Shown here one piece after another: positions 6,132 through 64,000 of a stretch of DNA of 64,000 nt (positions within the stretch are counted from its first letter, which is position 1; each line of letters starts with the position of its first letter). The DNA is from Chionis minor. Lineage: Eukaryota > Chordata > Aves > Charadriiformes > Chionididae. The DNA lies in NCBI GenBank assembly GCA_013398295.1, contig VZSF01007805.1, positions 1,128,752 through 1,192,751 of the forward strand, written 5' to 3'. Position numbers and translations under genes: made by a program. The notes below the pieces were generated by a model, which was not told the DNA's origin, made no database searches, and saw only the letters and a list, made by a program, of their open reading frames with translations.

Positions 6132-7026
6132 GTCACAGAATCACAAGGGTTGGAAGGGACCTCTGGAGATCCCCTAGTCCAACCTCCCTGCCAGAGCAGG
6201 TCCACCTGCAGCAGGATGGTGTCCAGGCGGGCTTGGAATGTCTCCAGAGTTGGAGACTCCACCACCTCTCTGGGCAGCCTGTTCCAGTGCTCTGTCACCC
6301 TCAAAGAAGTTCCTCCTTGTGTTCAGATGGAACTTCCTATGTTCAAGTTTGTGCCCATTACCTCTTCTCCTATCACTGAAAAAAGACTGGCCCCATCCTC
6401 CTGCCACCCTCCCTTTAAGTATTTATAAGCATTGTTGAGATTTCCCCCCTCAGTGTTCTGTTCTCCAGACTAAAAAGACCCAACTCCCTCAGCCTTTCCT
6501 CATAAGAAAGATGCTCCAGCCCCCTAATCATCTTTGTAGCCCTTTGCTGTACCCTCTCCAGCAGTTCCCTGTCCTCCTTGAACTGGGGAGCCCAGAACTG
6601 GACACAGCACTCCGGATGTGGCCTCACCAGGGCAGAGTAGAGGGGGAGGATGACCCCTCTTGACCTGCTGGCCACACTCCTCTTGATGCACCCCAGGATG
6701 TCTTTGGCCTTCTTGGCCACAAGGGCACATTGCTGGCTCATGGTCATCCTGTTGTCCACCAGGACTCCCAGGTCCCTCTCTGCACAGCTGCTTTCCAGCA
6801 GGTCAGCCCCTAACCTGTGCTGGTGTGTGGGGTTATTCCTCCTCAGGAGCCGTACCCTACGCTTGCCTTCGTTGAATTTCTTAAGTTTTCTCTCTGTCCA
6901 GGTCACGTTGAATGGCAGCACAGCCTTCTGGTGTGTCAGCCACCCCTCCCGGTTTCGTGTCACCAGCAAACTTGCTGAGGGTATGCTCTGTCCCCTCATC
7001 CAGTAGTGTATATAAAGGAACATCTC
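6132..7026 (-). mobile_element. CR1 non-LTR retrotransposon fragment (antisense)
   Basis: The + strand starts with the inverted CR1 3' end (agtcacagaatcac, then ggttggaagggacc) and continues through the CR1 body in reverse. On the - strand, an open frame of about 240 codons at 6415-7140 includes the C-terminal CR1 reverse transcriptase region, with motifs such as [39 protein letters not shown] and ELLERVQQRATKMIRGLEHL. The frame breaks before the end of ORF2, so a shift or deletion near 6410 separates it from the final segment ([16 protein letters not shown] at about 6250-6300). The copy is 5'-truncated, as most CR1 copies are. The exact 5' edge is uncertain. Confidence 0.93.
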
Positions 7027-8053
7027 AGGTGGGGGAGATTTTGGCTTTGGTGGGGCCAGGATTTCTTCCTTTTCTGACTGCCTAGAGCTCAGGTTTGACC
7101 CTCCTAATTTCCCACCTGCAACTAAATGCTCTCCTGGCAAAGCTGTGTGGAGTTGTGTTGATGCTTGCAGGTGATCAGAGCAACAGTGTCCTCTGAAATC
7201 TGAAATTACTATGATTTGAACTTAAAATAATCACCTAAACAATTTCTGTTTAAAAAAAAAAGTATTAATATTCTAATGTAGGTTTTAAACTTGATCAGTA
7301 TTCATCCATTATTGAGTACTAAAAGGATGCATGTTGCTATGCTGTATCTTTACAAAATGTTTTCAATTCTCTATACTTGTGCCTATATTGCAGAAATTGT
7401 TTGAGGGAGTTGTGTAAATGTCACTGCGCTGAAACTCACGTAGACTTCAAAGGAATTAAATGTAGGGGAGTGTTAAAGGAATTCCTTTGGCTTGTACTTT
7501 GTTATTATTTGTTGCATAGATAAGGGTTTTGTAGATCAGTTTGTGTGTGTGCCCTTTTTGTCTGGGTGAAACATCACTGTGTGAAGGGTGGGTGGCTATT
7601 TCCTTTTTCCAAGCGTTGAAGGGTCAGTCCCAAACAAGAAATTCACATTTTCTCAGGACTTTTGGTGATGTATCACCTATATCTGAAGTTGGTGCTCAAT
7701 CACGGGGTGGAACTGCTGGGAAAGGCACCCATCTGATGGCAAGTTTTTGGAGTGGTTTTGGGAAGGCTGCCGTGCTCCCTCCTTGGGGCTGAGGGCATGG
7801 ATCTGTGTCTGGGGTCGTTGTTCCTCCTTGGGCAGTAGGACTCGATGCTGTGACATAGGAATTTTGATCACCATAACCTTCCTGTTCTATAACTCTTTGG
7901 TCTTGTATTTATACCAAGCGACTGTCACCTGAGTTCCCCGAGACATTAGTGAGGGGAGGCAGGGGGTGAGCGGCTGCTTTAAAAGTAGGCGTTATGTTAA
8001 TGTAACATACACGACAATGAAGGTAATCTGCCTATGGTTGTTGATGCTTTAAA

Positions 8054-44040: not shown

Positions 44041-47000
44041 TAATGACTCGCAGAAACTTAACCCTGGGGCCAGGTGTTCACCTGAAAGTTCCATTTTCTT
44101 TTGTTTCCTTCTAAGCGTACCGGTCCTCTGTCGCGTTTTAAGGCCGGAGTAGCAAGGGTTTGGCTTTCACGGTGTCCCTCTGTACCGCAGTTAAGTGCTA
44201 GGAGACGGGCTAGAAGTGATGAGTAATTAATATGGTATCCAAAGTTTAGTTGCAAATGTATATGTTTCTCCTGGTGTCTTGTAAAGCATGAGTATTTGAA
44301 TTAAATCATAGAATCGTCTAGGTTGGAAGGGGCCTTTAAGATCATCGAGTCCGGCCATCCACCTAATACTGCCAAAACCACCCCTAAACCATGTCTCTCA
44401 GCATCATGTCTACCCATCTTTTAAATACCTCCAGGGATGGTGATACCACCACTTCCCTGGGCAGCCTGTTCCAATGTTTGATAACCCTTTCTGTGACGAA
44501 TTTTTTCCTAATATCCACCCTAATCTTCCCCTGGTGCAATTTGAGGCTGTTTCCTCTTGTGCTATCACTTCTTACTTGGGAGAAGAGACCGACTCCCACC
44601 TGGCTACACCCTGCTTCCAGGTAGTTGTAGAGAGTGAGGTCTCCCCTCAGCCTCCTTTTCTCCAGGCTAAGTAACCCCAGGTCCCTCAGCTGCTCCTTAT
44701 GGGGCTTGTTCTCCAGACCCCTCACCAGCTTCACTGCCCTTCTCTGGACACGCTCCAGCACCTCAATGTCTGTCTTGTAGTGAGGGGCCCAAAACTGACC
44801 ACAGTATTCGAGGTGGGGCCTCACCAGTGCCGAGTACAACAGGATGATCACTGCCCTAGTCCTGCTGGCCACACTGCTCCTGATACAGGCCAGGATGCTG
44901 TTGGCCTTCTTGGCCACCTGAGCCCACTGCCAGCTCATATTCATCCAGCTGTTAACAAACACCGCCATGTATGGCTGGGGTTTTTAAGCTTTTTGTTCTA
45001 TGGTGTCCTTGGTTTTACTTTCCCCATATTTATTCACTGATGCCTGGAATCTGAGGAAAGACTTCATCCTGATTGAGTCTGGATTTACTTACCTCTGTTA
45101 GACTGGGAAGCAAGCAATTTGCTAACCAACCTCAACAAGTGATTTATTAATTTAAAAAGAGTAATTTGAAAAAAATTGCAGTTTATCAATTTTTTTAATT
45201 GGTCATCCATAGCTTTTGTTTGCAATTTACAATGTCTTGTGTTTGACTTATTTGATTTATTAATGTTCCTTTAAAGTACAATAAAGAATGTTTGGAGTTT
45301 GGTTGTGGTTTTTTACTAGCTTTATGCATATATAGTTTTCCTTAAGTGTTTTTTCGTAGTTTTGAGGCATGTTTTTCAAGTTATTACTTGCTTCTGTGGA
45401 ACCCTAGGGTAATACTGAAATCGTTATAATCCAGTACTTGTACCAAAAAAATTAAGAACTACTTAAATCAGACTATCTATGTTAAATGATGTGTGTTTTA
45501 GTCTGTGTCGGTGACTAAATTCACGACTGCATCTCATAGAAGTGCATCTATGTTGCTTCAGCCTTTAATCTTACAGGTTCTCCCATAATTGGAGGACTTG
45601 ATGGAAACCTTGTATGTAGAAAGTAGTAACATTAGTTTTATCATCAAAATGCAATTAAAAAAATCTGACTTCAGAGTTTCTTCTCTCAGATTTTAAATGT
45701 TGCGGCTTCGTGATACAAAGTGCTGGTTCAGCATAAACTCGCTTAGCTGTTTCAGAGTTGTTTAAATAACTCTGGTAGGTTCACTTCAAACAGAAGCGCT
45801 GTGTTACCAGAAGTTCTGTGTATGTGATGTGACATGACAGCACACCGCAGAAAGCTAACTTGTAAGGATGACTTGGTCTGAGTAAACTTGTCTTGAGGCA
45901 GAATTATAAAGTCTTACATTCAGGATCTGGGAAGGAGGCAGTGAGCCACACAAAATCATCGATATAGAGCAAAGTATATTTAAAGTGTCTGTTCTAATGT
46001 GTTTGCTCTTTCTGTCCCTCATAAACTGTTAACCTATGAGAACAGTGCGGAGGGGAATTCAGAACCAATACTATTTTACAGTGAAAGACTCATTACAAGA
46101 AGATGTTAGTCAAAACACAATAGTCTTTCTATTCAATAACAACTTGCTTTATTCTTCTAATGTTGAAATGTTGACTGATTCTTGTATTTCAGAGTTTGTT
46201 GATTGATCCTCCTGGTAGTAGGATGAGATTTCCATGAGAATTGAAGAAATCTGTATTGGCCGCTACATTTGCACCATTCAGGCACAGGCTTGTTGCAGTT
46301 GGACACTTGAGACATATTCCAGAGCTGCCTAAATTGATATAAGCTGTACTGTTGCGTTTTTCTGCTCTCACTATAGTTGTTGTGCCACCGCTAGTGCCAA
46401 CATGACTCCACATTAAACTGGAGTGGGTAATTAATCTGGCTGGGCGGGAAACACCAATTCAGTTTCTTGACTGGCTCCTCTCATCCACCAGTACAATGGA
46501 AAGGGCAGGAACACGCAGCTGCCGTGGATGGGGGAGTGTTGTTTGCACTTAAATTAGCCACCATGGAGCTGCACCTTTAAATTTTTGGTTTTACATTGAA
46601 TTCAATCTAATGGTGACAGTTGACTGCCAAAAGCTGCCTTTTATCTTCCATGCTTGCTCATCTGTTGTTTTCTTTAACAACTGTGTAACCATGGGCTGTT
46701 TATATCAATAAACAATATATCAGCTTAGTGTTTGTTGGATCCTGAAGAGCAACTAGAAGAACACATTTATCCTCTGCTATACTTACTGTCCAGGAGATTT
46801 TTTTCTTTAAGAGTTATTGGTGCTTTCCCTAGCACCAGTATCCCAGATGGTAGTTTGCTGTTTCAAATAATCTTGTCTTAAAGTGCGCCTTTATGTCTCG
46901 CTTTTCTTCTGCTTCTATTTATTGAGCTAGTAAGGCTCAAATGATGGCTATAAGGTAGTAATTTTCAAATTTTATCTAATCTCAAAAAGCAGGAGGCTAT

Positions 47001-50000
47001 TTGAAACATTTATTCAGGAAAGAAGTTTTATTTCTTTCCGTCTCTTCACATGTCTTGTATGTAAGGGTGTTTTTCCTTCTGGCTCTCAAATCTTTTCTTT
47101 TTTTCCCCCCTCTCTTTGAATCAAATAAGACTTTGAGGGGGTGTTGTTTTCACCTTGGTAATATTCAGCCAGTGGGTATCTGACTTCTTGTGTAATTCTG
47201 CACAGTGAAAAATGTTGGCAGGAGAAACTGCCAATTTTGTACTATTATATAAAATGAGAGCTTTTTTTCAAGCAGAGATGTTACTTGTGACTCACCTTCG
47301 TGGAATAGTAGATATTGAAACCAGAGAGTTGTGAACACATGCGTTAATTCTATTTCGATGTTGATACCAAGTAGGCTTGCTAAGGTACAGATTAAAATTA
47401 TATTAATATCATTTACATTTTTGGTGATGTTTGTGCCTGTATGTAGCCTCTGAACAAGGTGGAGGAGGACTATTATTTGTTTTGATAACTGTGAAAATAA
47501 ATTGGTCAGTATAGGAGAGGACACTTGATCTTCCAAGGAGGAAATCAAAGTGGCGACGTGGCATTCTTTAGTTCTGACGTTGCACCTATAATAAATAATT
47601 TGAAATAAATGGATAGTCAGGTTAGAATATGGTTACAAAAGATGGCATGTTTCCCCAGGAAGAAGATCTCAGAGGAAATGTGATCTGATAGTCGGTGTTG
47701 CAGTTCCTGAAGATGCAAAGTGGCACTGCTGCTCAAGTGCTCAAGACGGATGTCTCTGCTTCATCATACCCAATGTTAATTGACTCTGTATTAGGGTCTT
47801 TAGATGATGGAGTCTCCTCCCATGGGCAGATTGTTCCACCTGGGGCTTTTTTCTGGTTATAGAGGGGACTTAAGCAACCAGCTTACGCTTGTAAGCTGAA
47901 GCTGTGCTGCAGAGGGTAGAGTTGTTACGCTTTTGCTAGAGTCATCAGTGTTGCACTAACTCTGAGTCATCTATGCAATGTGTCAGGGGTGTCCAAGTTG
48001 CTTTGGGTATTTAATATAAAATCTTAAACCAAAAGAAGGCAGTTTGTTGAAGACAAAAAGAAGCCAGTAAAATTGTTGAATAGATACATCTGTGGATGAA
48101 AGTGCATGTATTTTGGATGCCAGTCATCTGTTGAACTTGTAAGTAATGGTCTTTATTTAACAAAGCTTTTAAACAGTGAGTATATTCACGCTGTTGCTTT
48201 GAGACTGCTTTTTGTACTCAGTGTACAGAAAACATCAATAAATGCAATATTTTGGAGTTGTGCCTCATGGATACAAGTAGTATGGAAATGCAGCAGTCAG
48301 GTAGTCAGTGAGAATGAGTGTTGACAAAGTAAGTAGTAGCTGTTGTTTTTCATTGGTATAGTTTCTTTTCATTTTACTTGGTGACTGTTCTGAAATGTGA
48401 TAACCACAGAGTTGATGTAATCAACATTTTCAGTAAGTATTCACCTTATTACTTAACATACATTAAAACTCCGGCGTTCACTTGAAGGAAACTAATGAAA
48501 GGGATAAGTAAATTAGATAATGTTTTGGTTTTTTAAAAAATAAAATTTAAACTGAGAAAAATCTCTGCTGGGTAATGCAGTGGCAGATTTAAAAATTGTT
48601 TCATTAACCTGTATCAAAATCATATAGGTTTCAAATAGAGGCTTCTAAATAAATGGAAAGATTGACTAGTTTGTTTTGTTTTTCAGGCTTTAGAAAGGAT
48701 GCGTCCTTACCTGTGTGACAAAATCATAGCTGAGAGACACTTTGATTACCTTCGTTCAAAGAAAATACTCACTAGAGAGGACACAGAAGAAATTTCTTCT
48801 CGATCTTCCAGTAGGAAAAAAACTGGGAAGTTACTGGACTACTTGGCTGAAAACCCAAAGGGACTAGATGCTTTAATTGAATCTATCAGACGAGAAAGAA
48901 CACAAAACTTCCTGTTACAAAAGATAACTGACGTAGTGTTGAAAGTCAAAAATGAAAAACTTGAAGCTCTCAAGGGTGAGAAGTTTATAATAATATTTTG
49001 TAAGATGTAAGTTCTGTCTCGAGGGCCTGCAGAATTAAACTCCAATAATTCTTTAAATCATGTTTCTTCGTACAGATTATTTTTTTTACTTCCTCTAGTG
49101 TTTGGGACAACATTCTTGGAAATATTGCCAGTTTCAGTTTAAGATACTAGTGCACGTATCCTAGCTCTGCCTTTTTACTATCTGAACATATCATAAATAA
49201 CAAATTGCAAAAAACCTTACCGTGTGTTGCTGTGATGGATAAGTCTGTCTTCACATCTCAGTTTTGCTTTCTATGAAGTTCTAATTCAGAACTCAAAATA
49301 GGTGGTTATCTTCCATCTTGCATTTCTCTTGAAGCTATTTGCTGCAGTGGCAGGATGCTCTGGTTTTGTTAGACTTTGCACCTCTGCAGAAGGTAGGCCA
49401 GCAAATGCAACCCGAGGGGAATTCTGCTGCTTGCCTTCAGTGGCAAAACTCCAAATTAGGCACTGTAAATGTATGCATGTGTTGTATTGTACAGGTAGAG
49501 GAGTTTTTGACACCCCCAAAGCCTGAAGTGACTATACATACTCAGATTTTAAAGCAGATAAAGCATTCTAAACCAAAAAAAAAAAAAAAAAAACAAAACA
49601 AAAACCCAACCTTACTTCCCCTTCCACACCCGTGAAAAGAGAAATAAAGAAGGAAGAAAGTATATTTTTAACCCTAGAGATGCAAGGCCTGAAGTTTTCT
49701 CTGGCTTCAGGTAAAACAGCCTTCAAATGCAGTCCACTCTGGAGAACCATGTAGCTGAAGCTTTTAAAAGTTGAAGAACCGAGTGAGAAAAATCTGTCAA
49801 AAGATGGGTCAAAGGGCTAAAGTGACTTCGTAAAATGAAGCTTAAATTACGGTGCATCTTTGGGAAGTAGTAGCTGGTACAGAAATATAGAGAAATCGGT
49901 CGCATAAGCCTAGATAACCTGCATGTGTGGTTTTTTTTTTTAATTTGTCATGAATATTGGGCTGTCACATGTGAGACGAAGAGGCTGAAAATACAGACAT

Positions 50001-52489: not shown

Positions 52490-55898
<3,409 letters not shown>

Positions 55899-56885
55899 GC
55901 AAGGTGTGCTGGATTTAGCCATAATGAGAATTTCAATGAACTTGAATTCCTCTGCTGGAATGGGAAACAAATACATGTTTACTGAATTTCTCTCTCCTAT
56001 CGGGTAGGGAATTTTATTTCTGTAGTATGCTTGCCTTTTGGAAAGCGCAAAATTAAATGGACAGTGTCATGATAGGAGCTCATCTACTGAACAAAACTTA
56101 AACCTGTTTATTTAAAAGATCCGTTGTGATGGATACTTGTACTGATGCCAGTTACAGGGCTTCGTGGTATTTTGTTTATCAAGAAACCTGGTAACGTGAA
56201 CTTTTCTGGACTGACTTTTCCATTGTGTCAAAACCTTTTATAAAGGAGTATATACTAAAGATTCTCTAAGTACTGTCCTGTGATATGTTTGCATAATGTT
56301 GTTTTGAAGTGTATGTAAAGACTGCAGATAGATCACTGGAATAAAACTACATTTGAAAAAGTCTGCGGTATAAATATTGCGTTACATGCTCGGTGAATAG
56401 GAGGATGAATTCTGTACTTTATGCATTTCAGTGACGTATTTCTTGGGAAAAAACAGATTCCTCAGGGTTTTGTTTGTAATAAATACGCAACTGCAAACTG
56501 AAAAAAACATGGACCCAATAATGGAGTTTAATATTTGATAATGAGTTTTGATGTTATGTGATCTGCATCAGTGAAATACGAGACTAACTGGTACAGGAAG
56601 AATTGAAACATTTAACGTATTCTTCCTAAAATTGAAAACAGAATCTAGATATTTATGTAGAAAAAAAATATGACAAAGGTGAGATAGAGTCTTTACTGCC
56701 AAATTGTATTTATTTCAGTCCAAACAGTTGATAATCTTCTCAAAGTGTTAGTATTTGTTGTGTTTGTGATATACTGCTGCATGGATTTTTGGGTCCGGAT
56801 ATGAAAAGGTACCAGCAAAACTGGGTTGGAGGGAGGGGTGTTCTGGGTTTATTTTCAAATAAAGCTTCCATGCCTTAGGAAATCT
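55899..56885 (+). other. C1orf52: C1orf52 3' untranslated region (probable)
   Basis: AT-rich sequence with three AATAAA signals: 56340-56345, 56478-56483 and 56858-56863. The first (ggaataaaactacatttgaa) and the third (caaataaagcttccatgcct) are the best candidates. The end of the transcript is therefore between about 56365 and 56885. Confidence 0.5.
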
Positions 56886-59800
56886 GCAGTGAGATCAGGC
56901 CTACTAATAGAAGTTTATGTAATTAAACTATTAATGTAAACATTCATAACTTTTATTTTCCTTCTGTCTTGGATTAGCTTTAATTTGGCAGAATGGATTC
57001 TGTATGCATATGTGCTAATACGATATTAATATTTTTTAAAGTTATTTTTAAAAAAAATTCTTATGAACCTCAATAGATAGAAAAATGTACCCCTCTTTAA
57101 TGAGTATATGGAATTAGTGACAAGTTACGTGATTCTAGCCTTGGCAGTGTGATAATGCTTTCTCTGCATCCTTCTCTACCTGCAGACTCCGTAGCCGCTC
57201 CTTGCCAATTGCACAGGCCTTTGGGCCAAATGGGTGATATATTCCACCTCTTCTGTGCTGCCGGTCTGGAAACAATTCAAAAAATGGTAATTGTACACAG
57301 CTGAGGGTTCCCTGCACACCAGCTCTCCTAGCACAAGCCCAAGTATCTGAGGCTGTCGTAGCAAGCCCTGAGGCGAGGGGCGGTGTGGTGGCAAAGCTGA
57401 TGTAGGGCCACATCTGCGTGTGGTTTCTCAAAAGACTCTGGCTCCGGGAGAGGTGGCTGGGCTGGAGCAGGGACTGGGCTGGCAGGGAGCAGAGCAGAGC
57501 TGGCCTCCGCACTGTGAGGGGAACCTCCCGTGCCCTTAATGACGATCCTGCTGAGTTCCAGCTGGGATGGAGGCTCCCTCGCAGCAGTCATTCAGCAGTT
57601 TATCCCTTGCCAAAATGGAGCTTTTACTAGGTGGGCAGCCAGTGAGCGTGGCAGTGGAGGAGCTGTGGATATCTGCATTTTGTTGAGTTGAGAGGCCATA
57701 AATGCCTGTACTTTGCTTTGTCTAGAATGCTAGTGTAAACTCTCCCTTATTCTAGTAATAGTGCATGAAACTTCTACTAAAAATTGCCTAAAGCTGACCA
57801 GTTCTCTTATAGGAACTGCTGTGTCCACGCAGGTAATGCAGCCTTACATCATCCGCTTCAGGATGTGGATTGTCCTGTCCCAGCTGCTCAGGTAGCTGGT
57901 CACTAGGTCCTGGTCATCTGGGATCAAATGGTTTCCGTGAGCTTCACTTACAGGGAAAGAAAGGATGTTTTTCTTGCAGTGCTGAAGGCATGAAGTCTCT
58001 GAATGAAAAGGCTTGCTCTAATCTGTTTGGTTTTTTTCTGTGTCTGCTGTCCTAACGTAGCTAGGCTGAAGGTGCTGATCTTCAGAGAATGTGGTAGAAA
58101 AGATGACTGCTTGTGCTCCTTTTTTAATGGAAATATGTTTATACTGTAGCTGGCATAGAGAGCCGAGCATGGGGAATAGCAGTGAGCTCCTGTTCAGACA
58201 GGAAAATCAGATGTTTGGGCAGTTTCCCAAAGGTTTGGTCTGTGTCCAGACAGTGAGTTGCAGATTTAGTATGTCCAGCTAGACACTTCTTGAGAAATCC
58301 GCCTCTGCTGTCCTCTATGTACAGGATTTATTCCAAGGTTATGTGGGATGAATGGTACCATTTCTTCAAATGTGAGGGATTTGACATGAAGTACACGGTT
58401 CGATGGACTGATTAATTCTCAAGTCTGACAGTTCTGTTTGCTACTGAAGTGTTCCTTGAAGAGCGCTAGAGCTGAAGGTTAATTCACCAGCTGTGGAAGT
58501 AGGATGCATCCCTACAGCTGCCATGGCCAAGGAGGCTTTTGTCCTTGTATTGTTTGCTCTGCTGTTCTGAGGGGCTGTTTGGGAAGTTACCATGTTAATC
58601 ACTCCTTTTGTTTTCAGATTATATGATGTATGGGATATCCAGTTGTCTTGAAGTTAATACCAGCTGATACTCAGTTTCCAAGGAGGAAACCAGTGTGGCT
58701 AATCCGGGAGAAAAATGATTAATTGTATTATGTACAGGTTGAGGAAATCTTCGTTGTAAGCGGTGACCATGGCAGCTTCCCTATTCAGGAGAAACGGCAA
58801 AAGGAACTATGCTCCTTTTTCTTAAGTAAGACATCTGAAAGAAGGCTGTGAGAGCCTGTCTGAAGCCGAGTTATCCAGGTGGAATGCTTCTGCTGCTGGA
58901 AGTTTTTTGGTAGTGATGCTTCAGTGCATCGTCTTCAGGAGAAGATAGTGAGAGAAGTGCTAGTGCCGCAGCTTCTGGAGCAAGTCAGATTTCTTGACAC
59001 ACAGAGCATACAAAAAAGCCCAGAGCAGGGAGGGGACTGCTCAGAGATAAGAGACAGCATGTGCATTTTATTGTAAGTAAATGAGATTACATAAAATAAA
59101 GGTTATGTTTGTATCATCAGTGACTTGTAAAACGACTGCAGAACTCCCCATAGTGGAAAAAACGCTCACCACCTAACTGTGGTGAGAAAATGGCTGGAAA
59201 GGTAGAAAATGTTCCCAGCGATCGGCTTTGGTAGTATGAGAAGCACGTGCTTCTGTCGGAGGGGAAAAACCACAGGTTTCTATAGTTGGTACAAAGAGGC
59301 TGTTTTGGAACAGCTGGATTGAGTGAGACAGAATGTAGCTACTAGCCAGGAGAGGAAGAAAAGGAGAGAAAGCCCACTGATTTTGCCAAGAATCTGTATG
59401 GTCTTACTCAGATCACATAAAAAGCTTCTAAGAAAAACAGGCAATAGGCTAAATTATAAATGTTCATCTGGAGTTGGGCTTCTAGATCAAGATTACTGAT
59501 AACGCATCCGTGGCATTCATAGCTATGAAGCTGTAAAATTAACAGCCATTGTTCACGTTCCTCAACAAGTCCCTGGAGAGAGCACTCCCAGGAAAGATGC
59601 AGTCACGGTAAGCCTTGCAATTACAGGAGTGCATCCAACAGTCCCCAAAAGGGGATTCAAGTCTTCTCTGTTCCCTTTTTGCATGATTAGGAGAAGTGAC
59701 ACAGATTTACAAACCAAGAAAAATTAATAATGATGTGGTGCTTAATGAAAGCAGATAGGATAAGCGTGAAGAAATGAGCAATAAGAAGATTTTCGCATTT

Positions 59801-60280
59801 GCTTTGAAAGTAGAAGCGGGAAAGACTCGGAAGAAGCTGAGGGACAAACCTTGGTGGAACAAGAAACAGACTTGAAGGTTTTCTTCAGGTCTGGGCAGGT
59901 GATCATGCAAAATTGGCTACTCTGTGCATGAGGATCAGTGAAATGTGTGAGTGAACACTGACTAAACTTAAACCGATAGCTCAGATGTTCCAAAAATCTC
60001 TCGCTAGAGAACAGTTTATCCTGGATTGTCTTTCAAGAGGAGACAGTGACAGCGACAGTGAACATACACCCCCGCTGACAAATGGGGAAGATTGGCGCTG
60101 AAAATGAGCCCTCTATTAACTCATCATCATGCTGTTTTTATGATGAATCAAATGTGATGATGATCATTATGTGTAATGGGGAAAAAAAGGCAGTAAAAAA
60201 AGGTGTACAAGTTTGATCGGAGAAAATTCTCTTAAAAATTTGTCAAGATTAGAAAAACAGTGTCTGGAAGGCAATTAATT
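56886..60280. other. Intergenic region downstream of C1orf52
   Basis: No gene is supported. A GC-richer patch at 57.13-57.65 kb has overlapping frames on both strands and one exon-like segment on the - strand (57180-57265). A few ATG-less open stretches occur on the + strand at 59341-59490, 59503-59727 and 59955-60102. They precede the retrotransposon pol fossil and could be its upstream gag or protease part, but no motif confirms this. Confidence 0.5.
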
Positions 60281-60300
60281 TGCTGTGAAAGCATTGTGTT

Positions 60301-61935
60301 GCCTCCAGATGCTGGCACAATAGCAGCTACATTACTTGGATTTCCAAGAAAGGCAGGATGATGTGGAAAAGCAGAAGTCACATCGGTATAAAAGTACAGC
60401 TGTTGCGGATAATGGCTTTCATGGCAGGCAGTGCTTCCTCCCAGAAATGTTAATGCAGAGGTTGTTGCAAGGCATCCCTCCCTCAGTCCACTGTTCCTAT
60501 GCGACAGCTTGATGCGCGCTAACACTATGGAAGAAATTATTCATTTACAAATGGTTTGTGATAAGCTTAAGGCTGCCAATCTGAAAATGAATCCAGGGAA
60601 ATGCAGTGTATTCCGCAAAGGGTAATTTATTGTGAAACCGTAATCAGTGCAGGAGGATGATAATTTTTTTTTTTTTATCAACAGAGAGAAACACAAGCTG
60701 TGCGGTGCTGCCTGGCTCTTACTTTCTCTGGGGTCAGGAAGCTCATTTGCCAGCTTGCTAATCTCACAAAATCACGTCAGAATTTGGGTGAAAAGATGCA
60801 ATGCTTTCAGTCACCAGCAAGATACAATTTGGGTTTTCTTTTCAGGCTTGAAAGCTTCTTGTGCCTCTTTCTGTCTTAGCTTGCTGATTTTTTCCAAACC
60901 CCTTTGACTACTGGTCACAGACGTTTGTACTTTGCTTTGGGTGTGGGTTTGATGCGAGAACAATGTGGAACCATCTTAAAAGCATGGGAGCTGGTTACCG
61001 CTGAAGTGTGCATCCTTCAAGGATAAACGGTGGTACCAGTTGAAAGGGACCTCTGGCAATGGCTACAGCTGTGCAGCATTTCCGTTTTGAAAGAAAATGT
61101 GCAAGGATACTGACAATTACTCGATAGACTGGAAAATACTGAAAGTTTGGTTTCTGAATAGCTGGAAAAATCCCAGCACTGTCAGGCCTGGGCAGAAGCA
61201 TGGCCATACTGGTGGGCTATGGAGGTGAGCTTGCTCTACCAGTAACAGTGGAAATAGCTGCCCAGGTGTGCTCAGGAGGAGAAGCTGAGTCCTCTCTCTG
61301 TAATTCACAGGAGGGCAAACATCACAGAGGCAAAAAAACTTCCCAAAAAGAAGACTAGCATGGGATGTATTTAAAAAACCCTTGAGCGAATGGAGGCACC
61401 TTGCTAAGCAATCCGATTCCATTACTGCCAGAGGTGCTTTCTGGGTGCATTTGCTGCGGTGAAGTTTAAAGAACGATGCAAGAAGAGATGGCGATGGGCT
61501 AGGCAGTCTGCAGCTGCCTCAAAATGTCAAGACTGAAAGAAAAGCAGGATTTCTGTAGAGTCAAGTGTTGGCAAAATACAGAAAATTGCTGAAAGAAATA
61601 CAGTGTTTTCATTGCACAGGAGGCTTCCCATGGGACACGGAAATCTCAGGGAATGGTTCTGTTCCTGAGACAAACGTGTTGGTAGCAGTGGACTGCCTTC
61701 CAAAAGCTTGTAAGTCGTATAATTAGGAACCAAGAAATAGTGGGAATAAAAGAGATGGAGATTCCAGCCAGCGAGCTCTTCGTGCACAGACTATCGCAGA
61801 CTGAAGGAAGCGACGTTGTCTTCAGAGGGGTCCAGAGAATTTGTGTTGCTGGCAGAAATGTGCAGCTGGGCCTGAAAGGCAAAGTCGCAGTAGAGATTGG
61901 AATGGGTTTATGCTGCTGGTCCCTTTGAACTATTT
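60301..61935 (+). mobile_element. Degenerate Ty3/Gypsy-like LTR-retrotransposon pol fossil
   Basis: Short coding remnants in different + strand frames appear in the order of a Ty3/Gypsy pol. Reverse transcriptase: LLQGIP at 60462-60479, then after a one-base frame change DSLMRANT (60503-60526) where the active-site YxDD/LI block is expected, and LKAANLKMNPGKCSVFRKG (60566-60622). RNase H: TDVC at 60917-60928 and NYSIDWKILKVW at 61115-61150, the latter resembling the NYS..K.E.LA..W block. Integrase: PWDTEISGNGSVPETNV at 61628-61678 with LVAVD just after, and SDVVFRGVQ at about 61803-61829, where the second catalytic Asp is expected. The spacings YxDD to NYS (about 205 codons) and PW to SD (about 59 codons) are close to those of the family. 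Every segment is interrupted by stops or shifts, so it is inactive. No LTRs were found. The lineage within Ty3/Gypsy is undetermined. The assignment is from memory of family motifs, not a search. Confidence 0.6.
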
Positions 61936-62377
61936 TCTTCAGGGCACTTCTGAAAAAAGCAGGAATTTTCAGGGAAGCCAGGACCTGTGAAGCTGGATTG
62001 GCAGAAGAATGCAATGAATTCAATGAATGGAGGTAAGCATTTTTGGTCCTATTCAAATAATTTTATCAGTGCTCTTCATTTAGAAGATGAAGTGCTTTTC
62101 ATCTTTAGAATGTTTTCGTCTTAGTGGCTTCAAAAGATAAATCACAGCTTTGCTTTGCCGTAGCTGTGAGCAACAATGCAAGTGCTCTGTGTTTTGCTGC
62201 CTTCTCACAAGGTGAACCTATTCTTTGGAGCAAACATTGATTTCTCATCCCTTCGCTTAACTTCTCCCACCATCTGTGTCTTCCTGTAGATGGATTGATA
62301 CGAAAACAAATGCAGGATTAATACAGGGTAACACCAGGAGAGTGTAATGGGGAGTTAAACCTAAACCACAGGATTTA

Positions 62378-62436
62378 CCAGGAGAGGATTAACATATTCA
62401 CCTCAAACCAAGCCAACCAACCAACCCCCCCCCCCC
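62378..62436. repeat. Left flank of gap: repeat unit ending in CCAA and C-run
   Basis: The sequence aggagaggattaacatattc (from 62380), then an A/C-rich stretch with ccaa repeats, ends in a C-run that abuts the N block. Nearly the same order recurs right of the gap. Confidence 0.7.
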
Positions 62437-62579
62437 NNNNNNNNNNNNNNNNNNNNNNNNNNNNNNNNNNNNNNNNNNNNNNNNNNNNNNNNNNNNNNNN
62501 NNNNNNNNNNNNNNNNNNNNNNNNNNNNNNNNNNNNNNNNNNNNNNNNNNNNNNNNNNNNNNNNNNNNNNNNNNNNNNN
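62437..62579. other. Assembly gap (143 N)
   Basis: A run of undetermined bases sits between two copies of an agaggattaacatattc...C-run unit. The real content and length are unknown; a C-rich tandem array is likely. Confidence 0.98.
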
Positions 62580-62631
62580 AGAGGATTAACATATTCCCCC
62601 AAACAAAACCACCAACCCCCCCCCCCCCCCC
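62580..62631. repeat. Right flank of gap: second copy of the repeat unit
   Basis: agaggattaacatattcccc followed by an A/C-rich stretch and a C-run (to about 62631) repeats the left flank with small differences. It is either a tandem satellite unit or an unmerged overlap. Confidence 0.7.
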
Positions 62632-62978
62632 AGCAGCAGGCTGCCAGCAAAAGTAACTGGGGAGCCTGTCTGTTGGGAAGCACAACATGGTCCAGTTTTG
62701 TTAAACAAGTAACTTCTCTGACATGTGGTGGTAAGAGATGCCTTGAGGAACCCGACCAGGTGATGTGAGAGACTAATTACCTTTCTTTTGTAGGAAGGAA
62801 CACATCTACGTAAAAAAGACCTAAAGAAGGGGCTTACACAAAAACATTTCTCTCTGTTAGGTTTCTGGTCCAGTAAAAGTATCACTTTCTGTTGTGATTA
62901 GAAGAAGCCTAAGAGAAATGCACAGATCCCTTCTTCAGGACTGATAAAATGGTATTTTGTGAGACTAAGAGCTTACAT

Positions 62979-63098
62979 TTAAAAGACAGGTAGATGTGGT
63001 GCTGAGGGACATGGTTTAGGGGTGGTTTTGGCAGTGTAGGTTTATGGTTGGACTTGATGATCTTGAAGGTCTCTTCCATCCCAAGTGATTCTGTGATA
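62979..63098 (+). mobile_element. CR1 fragment, 3' end only (sense)
   Basis: ttaaaagacaggtagatgtg followed by gtgctgagggacatggttta, later ggacttgatgatcttgaagg, and the end aagtgattctgtgatact. This is the last 120 bases of a CR1 copy of the 8.05/44.3 kb subfamily, in sense orientation, heavily 5'-truncated. Confidence 0.92.
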
Positions 63099-64000
63099 CT
63101 ATGCATTGTCTGAAATGTTTTAAAGAGTTGTATTATTTAATGCAACTGTAAGGTTGGCAATGGCAAAGACTTGTTTAAAAACATACTGGTTTGATAGTTA
63201 GGAATACTGTTTTTTATACAAGACCTAAGGTTTTTCATACCATCAGTGACTTGTTCTCACAGGAACCTTTGTGCATGCCTTTTGAATGGTTGTAAATAAG
63301 CTCTCTCTCTCTGACAGTTTAAATAAGCCATGCCACCATGACCTTTGACATAGTAATGAAATACTGCTTACATTTTATAAACTTAGATTTTTCAAAGCAT
63401 CTATATAAAGCAGCACATAGACTTATGTAAGGCAACACACAGAGTTACATGCTATAGAACTATTATATTACTATAATATTACTAGATTCTTTGTATTTTT
63501 TTCCTACAGAAGCATAATTGACACTTCAAGCTGGCAATAAGAAAATAAGGAGAATCCATGTCATTAAGAGATTCCAATGCTGATGAAACAGGGAGACTTA
63601 CTGGATACAGACTGTATATATCCAAATTCAGGGCTTCTTGAATGATCAAGAGCCAGCAGCGAATAAATTTTGATCTGACCTTATTAGGATCCCAGGTATG
63701 TATCATCCCCATCCTCCTGCTGGGCATCCCGTATTTCCCTGTCTTTTCTCGCCTTTTTGGAACAGCTGATGAGTCAGTAAAGTATCACAGAAGTAGCAGA
63801 AATGTGCACTGCTCCATCAGCAAAATCATCCAGCAGACCACTGGGCAAATGAAGCCCTGCAATAATTTAGCTCTTTATATTCTACATTTGTTGGCTTTTC
63901 AGCTGTGCTGCTCCAGTAGAGGGTGCTTTTGTTAACTGCTGGCATATTGCCTGTTTGCGTTTCCAGTACTACTGTAAACAACAGACCCCAATTTTCTTCT
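63099..64000. other. Intergenic, nothing recognised
   Basis: AT-rich single-copy sequence with short TA-rich motifs at 63460-63490. In human the next gene in this direction is SYDE2, but no SYDE2 exon is visible here. Confidence 0.5.

What the first reader, a model, noticed from the sequence alone, without database searches (positions are those of the whole stretch)
60301..61935. Ty3/Gypsy-type pol fossil in a bird genome
Reverse transcriptase, RNase H and integrase-like remnants occur in the correct order and close to the correct spacing on one strand, broken by stops and frameshifts. Independent short matches at family-typical distances are unlikely by chance. Ty3/Gypsy elements are abundant in fish, amphibians and some reptiles but are scarce in birds, where recognised LTR elements are mostly retroviral. 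This may be an old amniote insertion, or the remains of a domesticated gene lost in birds. Direct observation: the motifs and positions. Family assignment: from remembered motifs. Age: inferred from decay.
Basis: partly seen in the sequence, partly recalled or inferred. Interest (0 to 1): 0.75.

Follow-up and report, generated by a model that had tools for sequence, protein, structure and literature searches.

The report
Ancient Ty3/Gypsy retrotransposon fossil in bird
A stretch of bird DNA between two ordinary genes is the badly decayed remains of a jumping gene of a kind (Ty3/Gypsy) that is common in fish and reptiles but scarce in birds; it is real and very old, but of a kind already known from other land vertebrates.

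Summary
The finding holds in the main. A frameshift-tolerant comparison with a profile of 208 Ty3/Gypsy pol proteins scores 72.7 bits for reverse transcriptase (RT) plus RNase H on the + strand. The best of 44 other 10-kb strands of the same genome gives 34.0. RT (about 60183-60905) and the adjoining RNase H (about 60908-61225) are secure together. An integrase remnant (about 61655-61866) is in place but weak. Protease and LTRs were not found. The best single relative is 36% identical over 321 codons. The four retroviral or retrovirus-like comparators score 30 bits or less, so Ty3/Gypsy is much the likelier class. Simulated decay matches 0.3-0.5 substitutions per site. At published bird rates that is roughly 77-250 million years, so it may predate living birds. 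Five more Ty3/Gypsy RT fossils were examined in the same genome. The locus lies between C1orf52 and SYDE2. It is most simply an inert, neutrally decaying insertion. Frith (2022) reported dozens of old Gypsy fossils in human, so this is a new member of a known kind. Orthology in other species could not be tested here.

The parts
60183..60905 (+). remnant of the Ty3/Gypsy reverse transcriptase domain, spread over three frames with many frameshifts
   Evidence: profile score 56.0 bits, 44 real strands max 33.1; pieces and, against P0206 from 60241
60545..60657 (+). best-preserved block of the reverse transcriptase, after the place of the YxDD site: two adjoining pieces in neighbouring frames
   Evidence: 38.9 + 9.5 bits; 12/26 identical and 22/26 similar to P0206 in its first piece; Pfam RVT_1 match at model positions 166-192, E 0.18, below cut-off; 8 of 101 neutral simulations have a block as good
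60908..61225 (+). remnant of the Ty3-type RNase H domain directly after the reverse transcriptase
   Evidence: 27.6 bits, 0/300 shuffles of 60850-61350, not beyond the genome-wide null of 30.3 on its own; extension given RT 0/200
61655..61866 (+). weak integrase core remnant in the expected order
   Evidence: 24.0 bits; 8/300 shuffles of 61231-62436, 1/300 of 61500-62000; not beyond the genome-wide null of 26.5
59001..62000 (.). purine-rich stretch that may outline the body of the old element
   Evidence: purine fraction 0.545 over 58201-62300; 2 of 197 4.1-kb windows as skewed; 60501-61000 is not purine-rich; range chosen after looking

Best explanation
An LTR retrotransposon of the Ty3/Gypsy kind inserted between C1orf52 and SYDE2 in an ancestor of this bird, by copying its RNA with its RT/RNase H and pasting it with its integrase (inferred from the family). 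It has since decayed without selection into frameshifted pol pieces and now does nothing as an element (inferred). Shown here: the RT-RNase H homology, its strand and order, its nearest lineage among those compared, and the degree of decay. Inferred: insertion before the crown of living birds.
For: RT+RH profile score 72.7 bits versus max 34.0 in 44 real strands. 226 of 226 relatives score above their own two shuffles; best relative 115/321 identical. RNase H follows RT directly and no shuffled continuation of 200 reaches it. Retroviral or retrovirus-like comparators score 18-30 bits, and a foamy piece 9.6, versus 80 for P0206 (49.7 for the same piece). The number of frameshifts, 21, fits neutral decay simulations of like score (group means 15.7-26.1). 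Five further Ty3/Gypsy RT fossils, also nearest to P0206/P0071 among those compared, lie in the same genome (one of them, L098, ties with L063).
Against: No protease or LTR pair was found; gag and target-site duplications were not tested. Integrase is weak. Pfam does not reach its cut-offs. One ERV-like frame, L109, scores above shuffles at 30.1, as high as most Ty3/Gypsy proteins of other lineages (17-35). The block 60545-60657 is better kept than most simulations (8/101 as good), which could hint at constraint.
Confidence: 0.88

Rival explanations
1. It is the remnant of an endogenous retrovirus, whose pol shares ancestry with Ty3/Gypsy.
For: One ERV-like frame of this genome (L109) scores 30.1 against the window, above its null maximum of 22.3 and level with distant Ty3/Gypsy lineages. 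Pfam's Ty3-type RNase H families also match the ERV-like frames L109 and L110, so those families do not discriminate.
Against: P0206 scores 80 and P0071 68; OVEX1-like RT 20, L109 30, L110 18; a foamy RT piece 9.6, below its null mean of 13.0, where 208 Ty3/Gypsy pieces have median 35.3 and 55 of other lineages median 20.2. RNase H positions 609 and 675 read Asp in the fossil, whereas the OVEX1-like protein has Ala and Ser there (that these are catalytic is recalled).
Confidence: 0.06
2. It is a pseudogene of a host gene domesticated from Ty3/Gypsy pol and lost in this lineage.
For: Vertebrates have genes derived from such elements (PMC11011659, passages). One block is relatively well kept.
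Against: The one long intact pol-like frame I examined in this genome (C409) is not close to the window (20.4 bits, null max 26.0); intact relatives were not searched for systematically. The decay fits plain neutrality.
Confidence: 0.04
3. It is an old Ty3/Gypsy insertion part of which was exapted as non-coding regulatory DNA, so that a piece such as 60545-60657 has been kept.
For: Frith 2022 (abstract, two sections and passages seen) reports strongly conserved TE fossils with signs of exaptation. This block is at the upper edge of neutral simulations, 8/101.
Against: 8/101 is not significant. No other genome could be compared.
Confidence: 0.08
4. It is a chance resemblance.
For: Pfam does not detect RT at its cut-offs, and a chance-like alignment elsewhere reaches 41.8 bits with the whole profile (L073).
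Against: 78.5 bits with the same whole profile; RT+RH 72.7 versus 34.0. A Gumbel fit to the 44 strands (my arithmetic on the printed mean and sd) expects about 0.002 such scores per genome.
Confidence: 0.01

Closest known systems
Pre-amniote Gypsy protein fossils in human (Frith 2022, PMC9004415)
   Same: remnants of Ty3/Gypsy proteins in an amniote genome, found by sensitive DNA-protein comparison
   Different: those were dated by overlap with inter-genome alignments, and the abstract stresses extreme conservation of the oldest; here a bird, no orthology test, and decay that looks neutral. The main text has no occurrence of BCL10, SYDE2 or chicken
Ty3/Gypsy elements near P0206 and P0071 (most without a name; named hits include molluscs, fish, insects and a pseudoscorpion)
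   Same: closest pol sequences found, 33-36% identity over 319-327 codons, same RT-RNase H-integrase order
   Different: long open frames; the fossil is broken. Clade name within Ty3/Gypsy not assigned
Yeast Ty3 (PDB 4ol8, 7q5b)
   Same: same RT-RNase H arrangement; a 103-residue piece scores 21.0, reached by 0 of 100 shuffles
   Different: more distant than P0206 (49.7 for the matching piece)
OVEX1 (PMC2717909, passages seen)
   Same: ancient retroelement pol in birds
   Different: described as retroviral, with intact frames; the OVEX1-like locus of this genome is not close to the window (20.4 bits)

Membership tests
Ty3/Gypsy (Metaviridae) LTR retrotransposon | RT closest to Ty3/Gypsy RTs | tested here: met
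   P0206 80 and P0071 68 versus 18-30 for retroviral or ERV-like comparators; six further Ty3/Gypsy sequences 23-35, overlapping the best ERV-like one; one piece: 208 relatives median 35.3, 55 other Ty3/Gypsy median 20.2, foamy 9.6
Ty3/Gypsy (Metaviridae) LTR retrotransposon | RNase H directly after RT, without a retroviral tether | tested here: met
   alignment runs from RT into RNase H at 60905/60908; extension 0/200 shuffles; positions 609 and 675 read Asp, 650 Asp for Glu, 718 Gly for Asp. Caveat: the retroviral tether is itself RNase H-like (recalled)
Ty3/Gypsy (Metaviridae) LTR retrotransposon | integrase downstream of RNase H | tested here: inconclusive
   24.0 bits at the right place, but weak
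Ty3/Gypsy (Metaviridae) LTR retrotransposon | protease upstream of RT | tested here: not met
   PR score at null level (80/100 and 230/300 shuffles reach it); loss or decay beyond recognition is expected at this age, so it lowers completeness rather than lineage
Ty3/Gypsy (Metaviridae) LTR retrotransposon | long terminal repeats | tested here: not met
   no direct repeat of LTR size in 55500-64000; at about 0.4 substitutions per site they need not be visible to this ungapped method
Ty3/Gypsy (Metaviridae) LTR retrotransposon | gag | not tested
   no gag profile was built
Endogenous retrovirus | pol closest to retroviral pol | tested here: not met
   only four comparators: one foamy piece from PDB, and three of this genome whose retroviral nature is inferred
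Ancient (pre-crown-bird) protein fossil | orthologous insertion in distant relatives | not testable with these tools
   no other bird, crocodilian or turtle genome was available to the tools used

The most novel reading that the evidence does not exclude
The insertion is older than the bird-crocodilian split, and one short RT block (60545-60657) has been kept for a host function. It would be one relic of a Ty3/Gypsy wave in early archosaurs or earlier amniotes, of which this bird still carries at least six RT fossils.
Probability: 0.15. Interest if true: 0.55.

Novelty: new member of a known kind. Interest (0 to 1): 0.36.

Why it matters
Birds are described as poor in retrotransposon diversity (PMC5486457, passages). 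A fossil that can be dated by orthology, and five more in the same genome, make it possible to ask when Ty3/Gypsy elements were lost from the bird line. Crocodilian and turtle genomes evolve much more slowly (3.9e-10 and 4.77-8.43e-10 substitutions per site per year, passages of PMC4263362), so an orthologous copy there should be better preserved and would settle the age.

Tried and rejected
Pfam hmmscan of six frames with X at stops: no RT family. PDB sequence search with window pieces: no RT hit. Protein search with the window's own RT piece: 10 candidates, none scored. Distant blastn against phages and plasmids: none. RT-motif pattern in viral contigs: 0. Rfam on the window: 0 at gathering threshold. 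An LTR search by direct repeats found two short pairs only, one of them low-complexity. A 41.8-bit alignment in L073:3153-3744 was examined and judged chance: it lies in the weakly conserved linker and zinc-finger part of the profile, in fragments, although local shuffles reach only 34.8. The intact pol-like frame on G000:C409 first looked like a new domesticated Ty3/Gypsy gene. For OVEX1 instead: open frames on both sides and a 67% direct repeat of 379 nt, two of three RT aspartates lost and a Glu at the first integrase position, much as described for OVEX1 (PMC2717909, passages), and PDB best hits to foamy integrase (96 bits) before Ty3 (68). Against: its RT scores higher with P0071 (227) than with the two ERV-like frames (155, 149), Pfam's Ty3-type RNase H families match it well (64 and 75 bits), and no OVEX1 sequence was compared. 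I lean to OVEX1. Integrase-only remnants (L103-L108) score nearly alike with P0206 and the OVEX1-like integrase, so I do not count them as Ty3/Gypsy. The first version of the alignment script failed on import. The row labelled P0167 is a placeholder, because that protein was not in the alignment used; it carries no information. L051 is not independent of the profile (its protein is P0001, a member).

Full report
What was checked. The finding claims RT, RNase H and integrase remnants of a Ty3/Gypsy element at 60301-61935, + strand. The three forward frames show RT-like pieces broken by stops and frameshifts. Standard searches hardly see it: Pfam on six frames with X at stops lists no RT family, and PDB and protein searches with window pieces find nothing relevant. 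Of seven separate window pieces, one (60413-60625) lists one family, RVT_1, at E 0.18 and 11.9 bits against a cut-off of 29.6; the other six list none.

How relatives were found. A degenerate DNA motif for the Ty3-type RT found 63 contigs in the prokaryote genome collection. They are probably eukaryotic contamination (inference). 61 long frames, in 60 of the 63, carry the motif, and 55 of them gave a first profile. With it, a frameshift-tolerant local alignment scored 63.4 bits on the + strand of 59000-62436, against 25.3 on the - strand, at most 32.8 in 100 dinucleotide shuffles, and 35.2 in the next-best of 72 window tiles. Taken singly, the 55 proteins score 17.3-35.3; the best, L051, has a null maximum of 24.4. 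L051 was used to fetch further Ty3/Gypsy proteins (120 listed of 3592). The best of those, P0071, was used again (120 listed of 5524). Of the 226 distinct proteins, 226 score above their own two shuffles; the best, P0206, scores 79.7. An earlier run on the first 120 with six shuffles had 119 of 120 above.

Significance by domain. A profile was built from 208 of the 226 proteins; 18 were left out, mostly for length. It gives 78.5 bits for the whole pol, 56.0 for RT, 27.6 for RNase H, 24.0 for integrase core and 17.9 for protease. Real controls were 22 stretches of 10 kb from the same genome, both strands (44 strands). Their maxima are 41.8 whole, 34.0 RT+RH (fossil 72.7), 33.1 RT, 30.3 RNase H and 26.5 integrase. 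The 41.8 is in L073, 10-20 kb beyond the window's end, a scatter of fragments in the weakly conserved linker and zinc-finger part of the profile. RNase H and integrase do not exceed these maxima on their own. RNase H is secured by its position: none of 200 shuffled continuations of the real RT reaches the real one. Integrase is not: 26 of 200 shuffled continuations do, and its shuffle counts vary from 1/300 to 85/300 with stretch and penalties. Protease and the integrase zinc finger are at chance.

Anatomy. Pieces of RT run from about 60183 to 60905, RNase H from 60908 to 61225, and possible integrase at 61655-61866. Against P0206, 115 of 321 aligned codons are identical and 55.8% similar. The profile alignment of RT+RH holds 21 frameshifts. 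Stops are few in the aligned codons (0 in RT, 1 in RNase H, 1 in the integrase part), partly because the method penalises them. Conserved columns (90% or more in the profile) read unchanged in 48 of 132; seven intact elements outside the profile keep 93-103 of 132, and L051, whose protein is in the profile, 127. A mostly purine-rich stretch covers 59001-62000. No LTR pair was found.

Class. For the window, P0206 and P0071 score 80 and 68; six other Ty3/Gypsy sequences 23-35; the OVEX1-like RT 20 and its integrase 20; two ERV-like frames of this genome 30 and 18. So distant Ty3/Gypsy lineages mostly do no better than the best ERV-like frame; the assignment rests on the P0206/P0071 cluster and the profile. 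For one 100-residue piece, 208 relatives have a median of 35.3, 55 other Ty3/Gypsy proteins 20.2, yeast Ty3 21.0, a foamy RT piece 9.6. The retroviral side is four comparators only, three of them of inferred nature. RNase H positions 609 and 675 read Asp in the fossil, 650 Asp for Glu, 718 Gly for Asp.

Genome and place. The window lies at 1128752-1192751 of a 1.24-Mb contig of a 1.146-Gb assembly. A CARD exon (BCL10; name recalled) lies at 48666-49007 and DUF4660 (C1orf52; name recalled) at 53431-54192 and 54057-54479. A C2_SYDE domain and RhoGAP exons lie about 28-40 kb beyond the window's end (L094, L095). So the fossil sits between C1orf52 and a SYDE gene, SYDE2 by synteny (recalled).

Other copies. 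A search of the genome with P0206 lists 39 places; 38 of 326 candidates were scored, so the list is not complete. I fetched 15 of the 39 rows, choosing mostly higher-identity ones. Five RT rows (L096-L100) score 127-192 bits with the profile against shuffle maxima of 26.7-29.2, and 88-154 with P0206 against at most 50 with the retroviral or ERV-like comparators. Six integrase rows (L103-L108) cannot be assigned. Two rows are ERV-like (L109, L110), and two are one OVEX1-like locus (L101, L102). The other 24 rows were not examined. The window's own fossil is not in that list, as expected for a search that reads single frames.

Age. Random decay of RT-RH stretches of four contaminant elements gives a score of 55-95 at 0.30-0.50 substitutions per site (101 of 480 simulations, which ran from 0.20 to 0.50, so the upper end is bounded by the range tried). 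A first set up to 0.80 puts a score of 72.7 between 0.3 and 0.5 by medians. At 2-3.9e-9 substitutions per site per year (PMC2946954, passages) this is about 77-250 million years. Slower ancestral rates would make it older. This is an estimate, not a date.

Literature. Frith 2022 (PMC9004415; abstract, sections 8 and 15, and passages) lists Gypsy fossils in human that predate the amniote ancestor: four in the part of one table seen, 83 in another; and finds ancient Gypsy but no ancient ERV fossils. PMC11011659 (passages) counts one metaviral capsid-like frame in chicken against 13 in alligator and 32 in painted turtle. PMC5486457 (passages) describes low retrotransposon diversity in birds. My searches list no paper that I recognise as on this locus; supplements were not read.

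Conclusion. This is a real, old, broken Ty3/Gypsy pol fossil, ordinary in kind, of moderate interest because it is in a bird and can be dated by orthology.

Noticed in passing
G000:C4057:184903-185490, C217:197480-197797, C1250:418767-419231, C175:209809-210342, C2973:46782-47453 (L096-L100): Five further Ty3/Gypsy RT fossils in the same genome, 127-192 bits with the profile, higher-scoring than the window's.
   Followed up: partly
G000:C409 about 1146925-1150593 with flanks L111, L112: Pol-like frame reported open over 1222 aa, with RT, RNase H and integrase positions that are usually catalytic changed, zinc-finger H and C positions kept, an open frame of at least 569 aa before it and one of 853 aa after it (no Pfam family in either), and a 67% direct repeat of 379 nt in the flanks: most like the published domesticated retrovirus OVEX1, though a domesticated Ty3/Gypsy-like gene is not excluded (PMC2717909 passages).
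   Followed up: partly
L103-L108 (G000:C3798, C2405, C2126, C90, C2205, C768): Integrase-only remnants scoring 80-110 with P0206 and 75-102 with the OVEX1-like integrase; could be Ty3/Gypsy, retroviral, or pieces of GIN-type genes.
   Followed up: partly
window 62376-62631: Assembly gap 62437-62579 of N with closely similar sequence and C-runs on both sides (about 195 bases apart): possibly a scaffolding artefact of a duplicated contig end.
   Followed up: no
L001-L063: 63 contigs titled as bacterial or archaeal genomes match a Ty3/Gypsy-type RT motif, 60 of them with a long frame that carries it: probably eukaryotic contamination in public prokaryote assemblies.
   Followed up: no
window 6418-7221 (-) and 44387-44983 (-): Long frames resembling the 3' part of CR1 LINE RT (recognised by eye; Pfam lists no family at E 0.01).
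   Followed up: no
window 60664-60676: Run of 13 T inside the RT remnant where the alignment breaks; possibly a small later insertion.
   Followed up: no
L073:3153-3744: Alignment of 41.8 bits to the linker/zinc-finger part of the Ty3/Gypsy profile, above local shuffles (max 34.8) but fragmentary; judged chance.
   Followed up: partly
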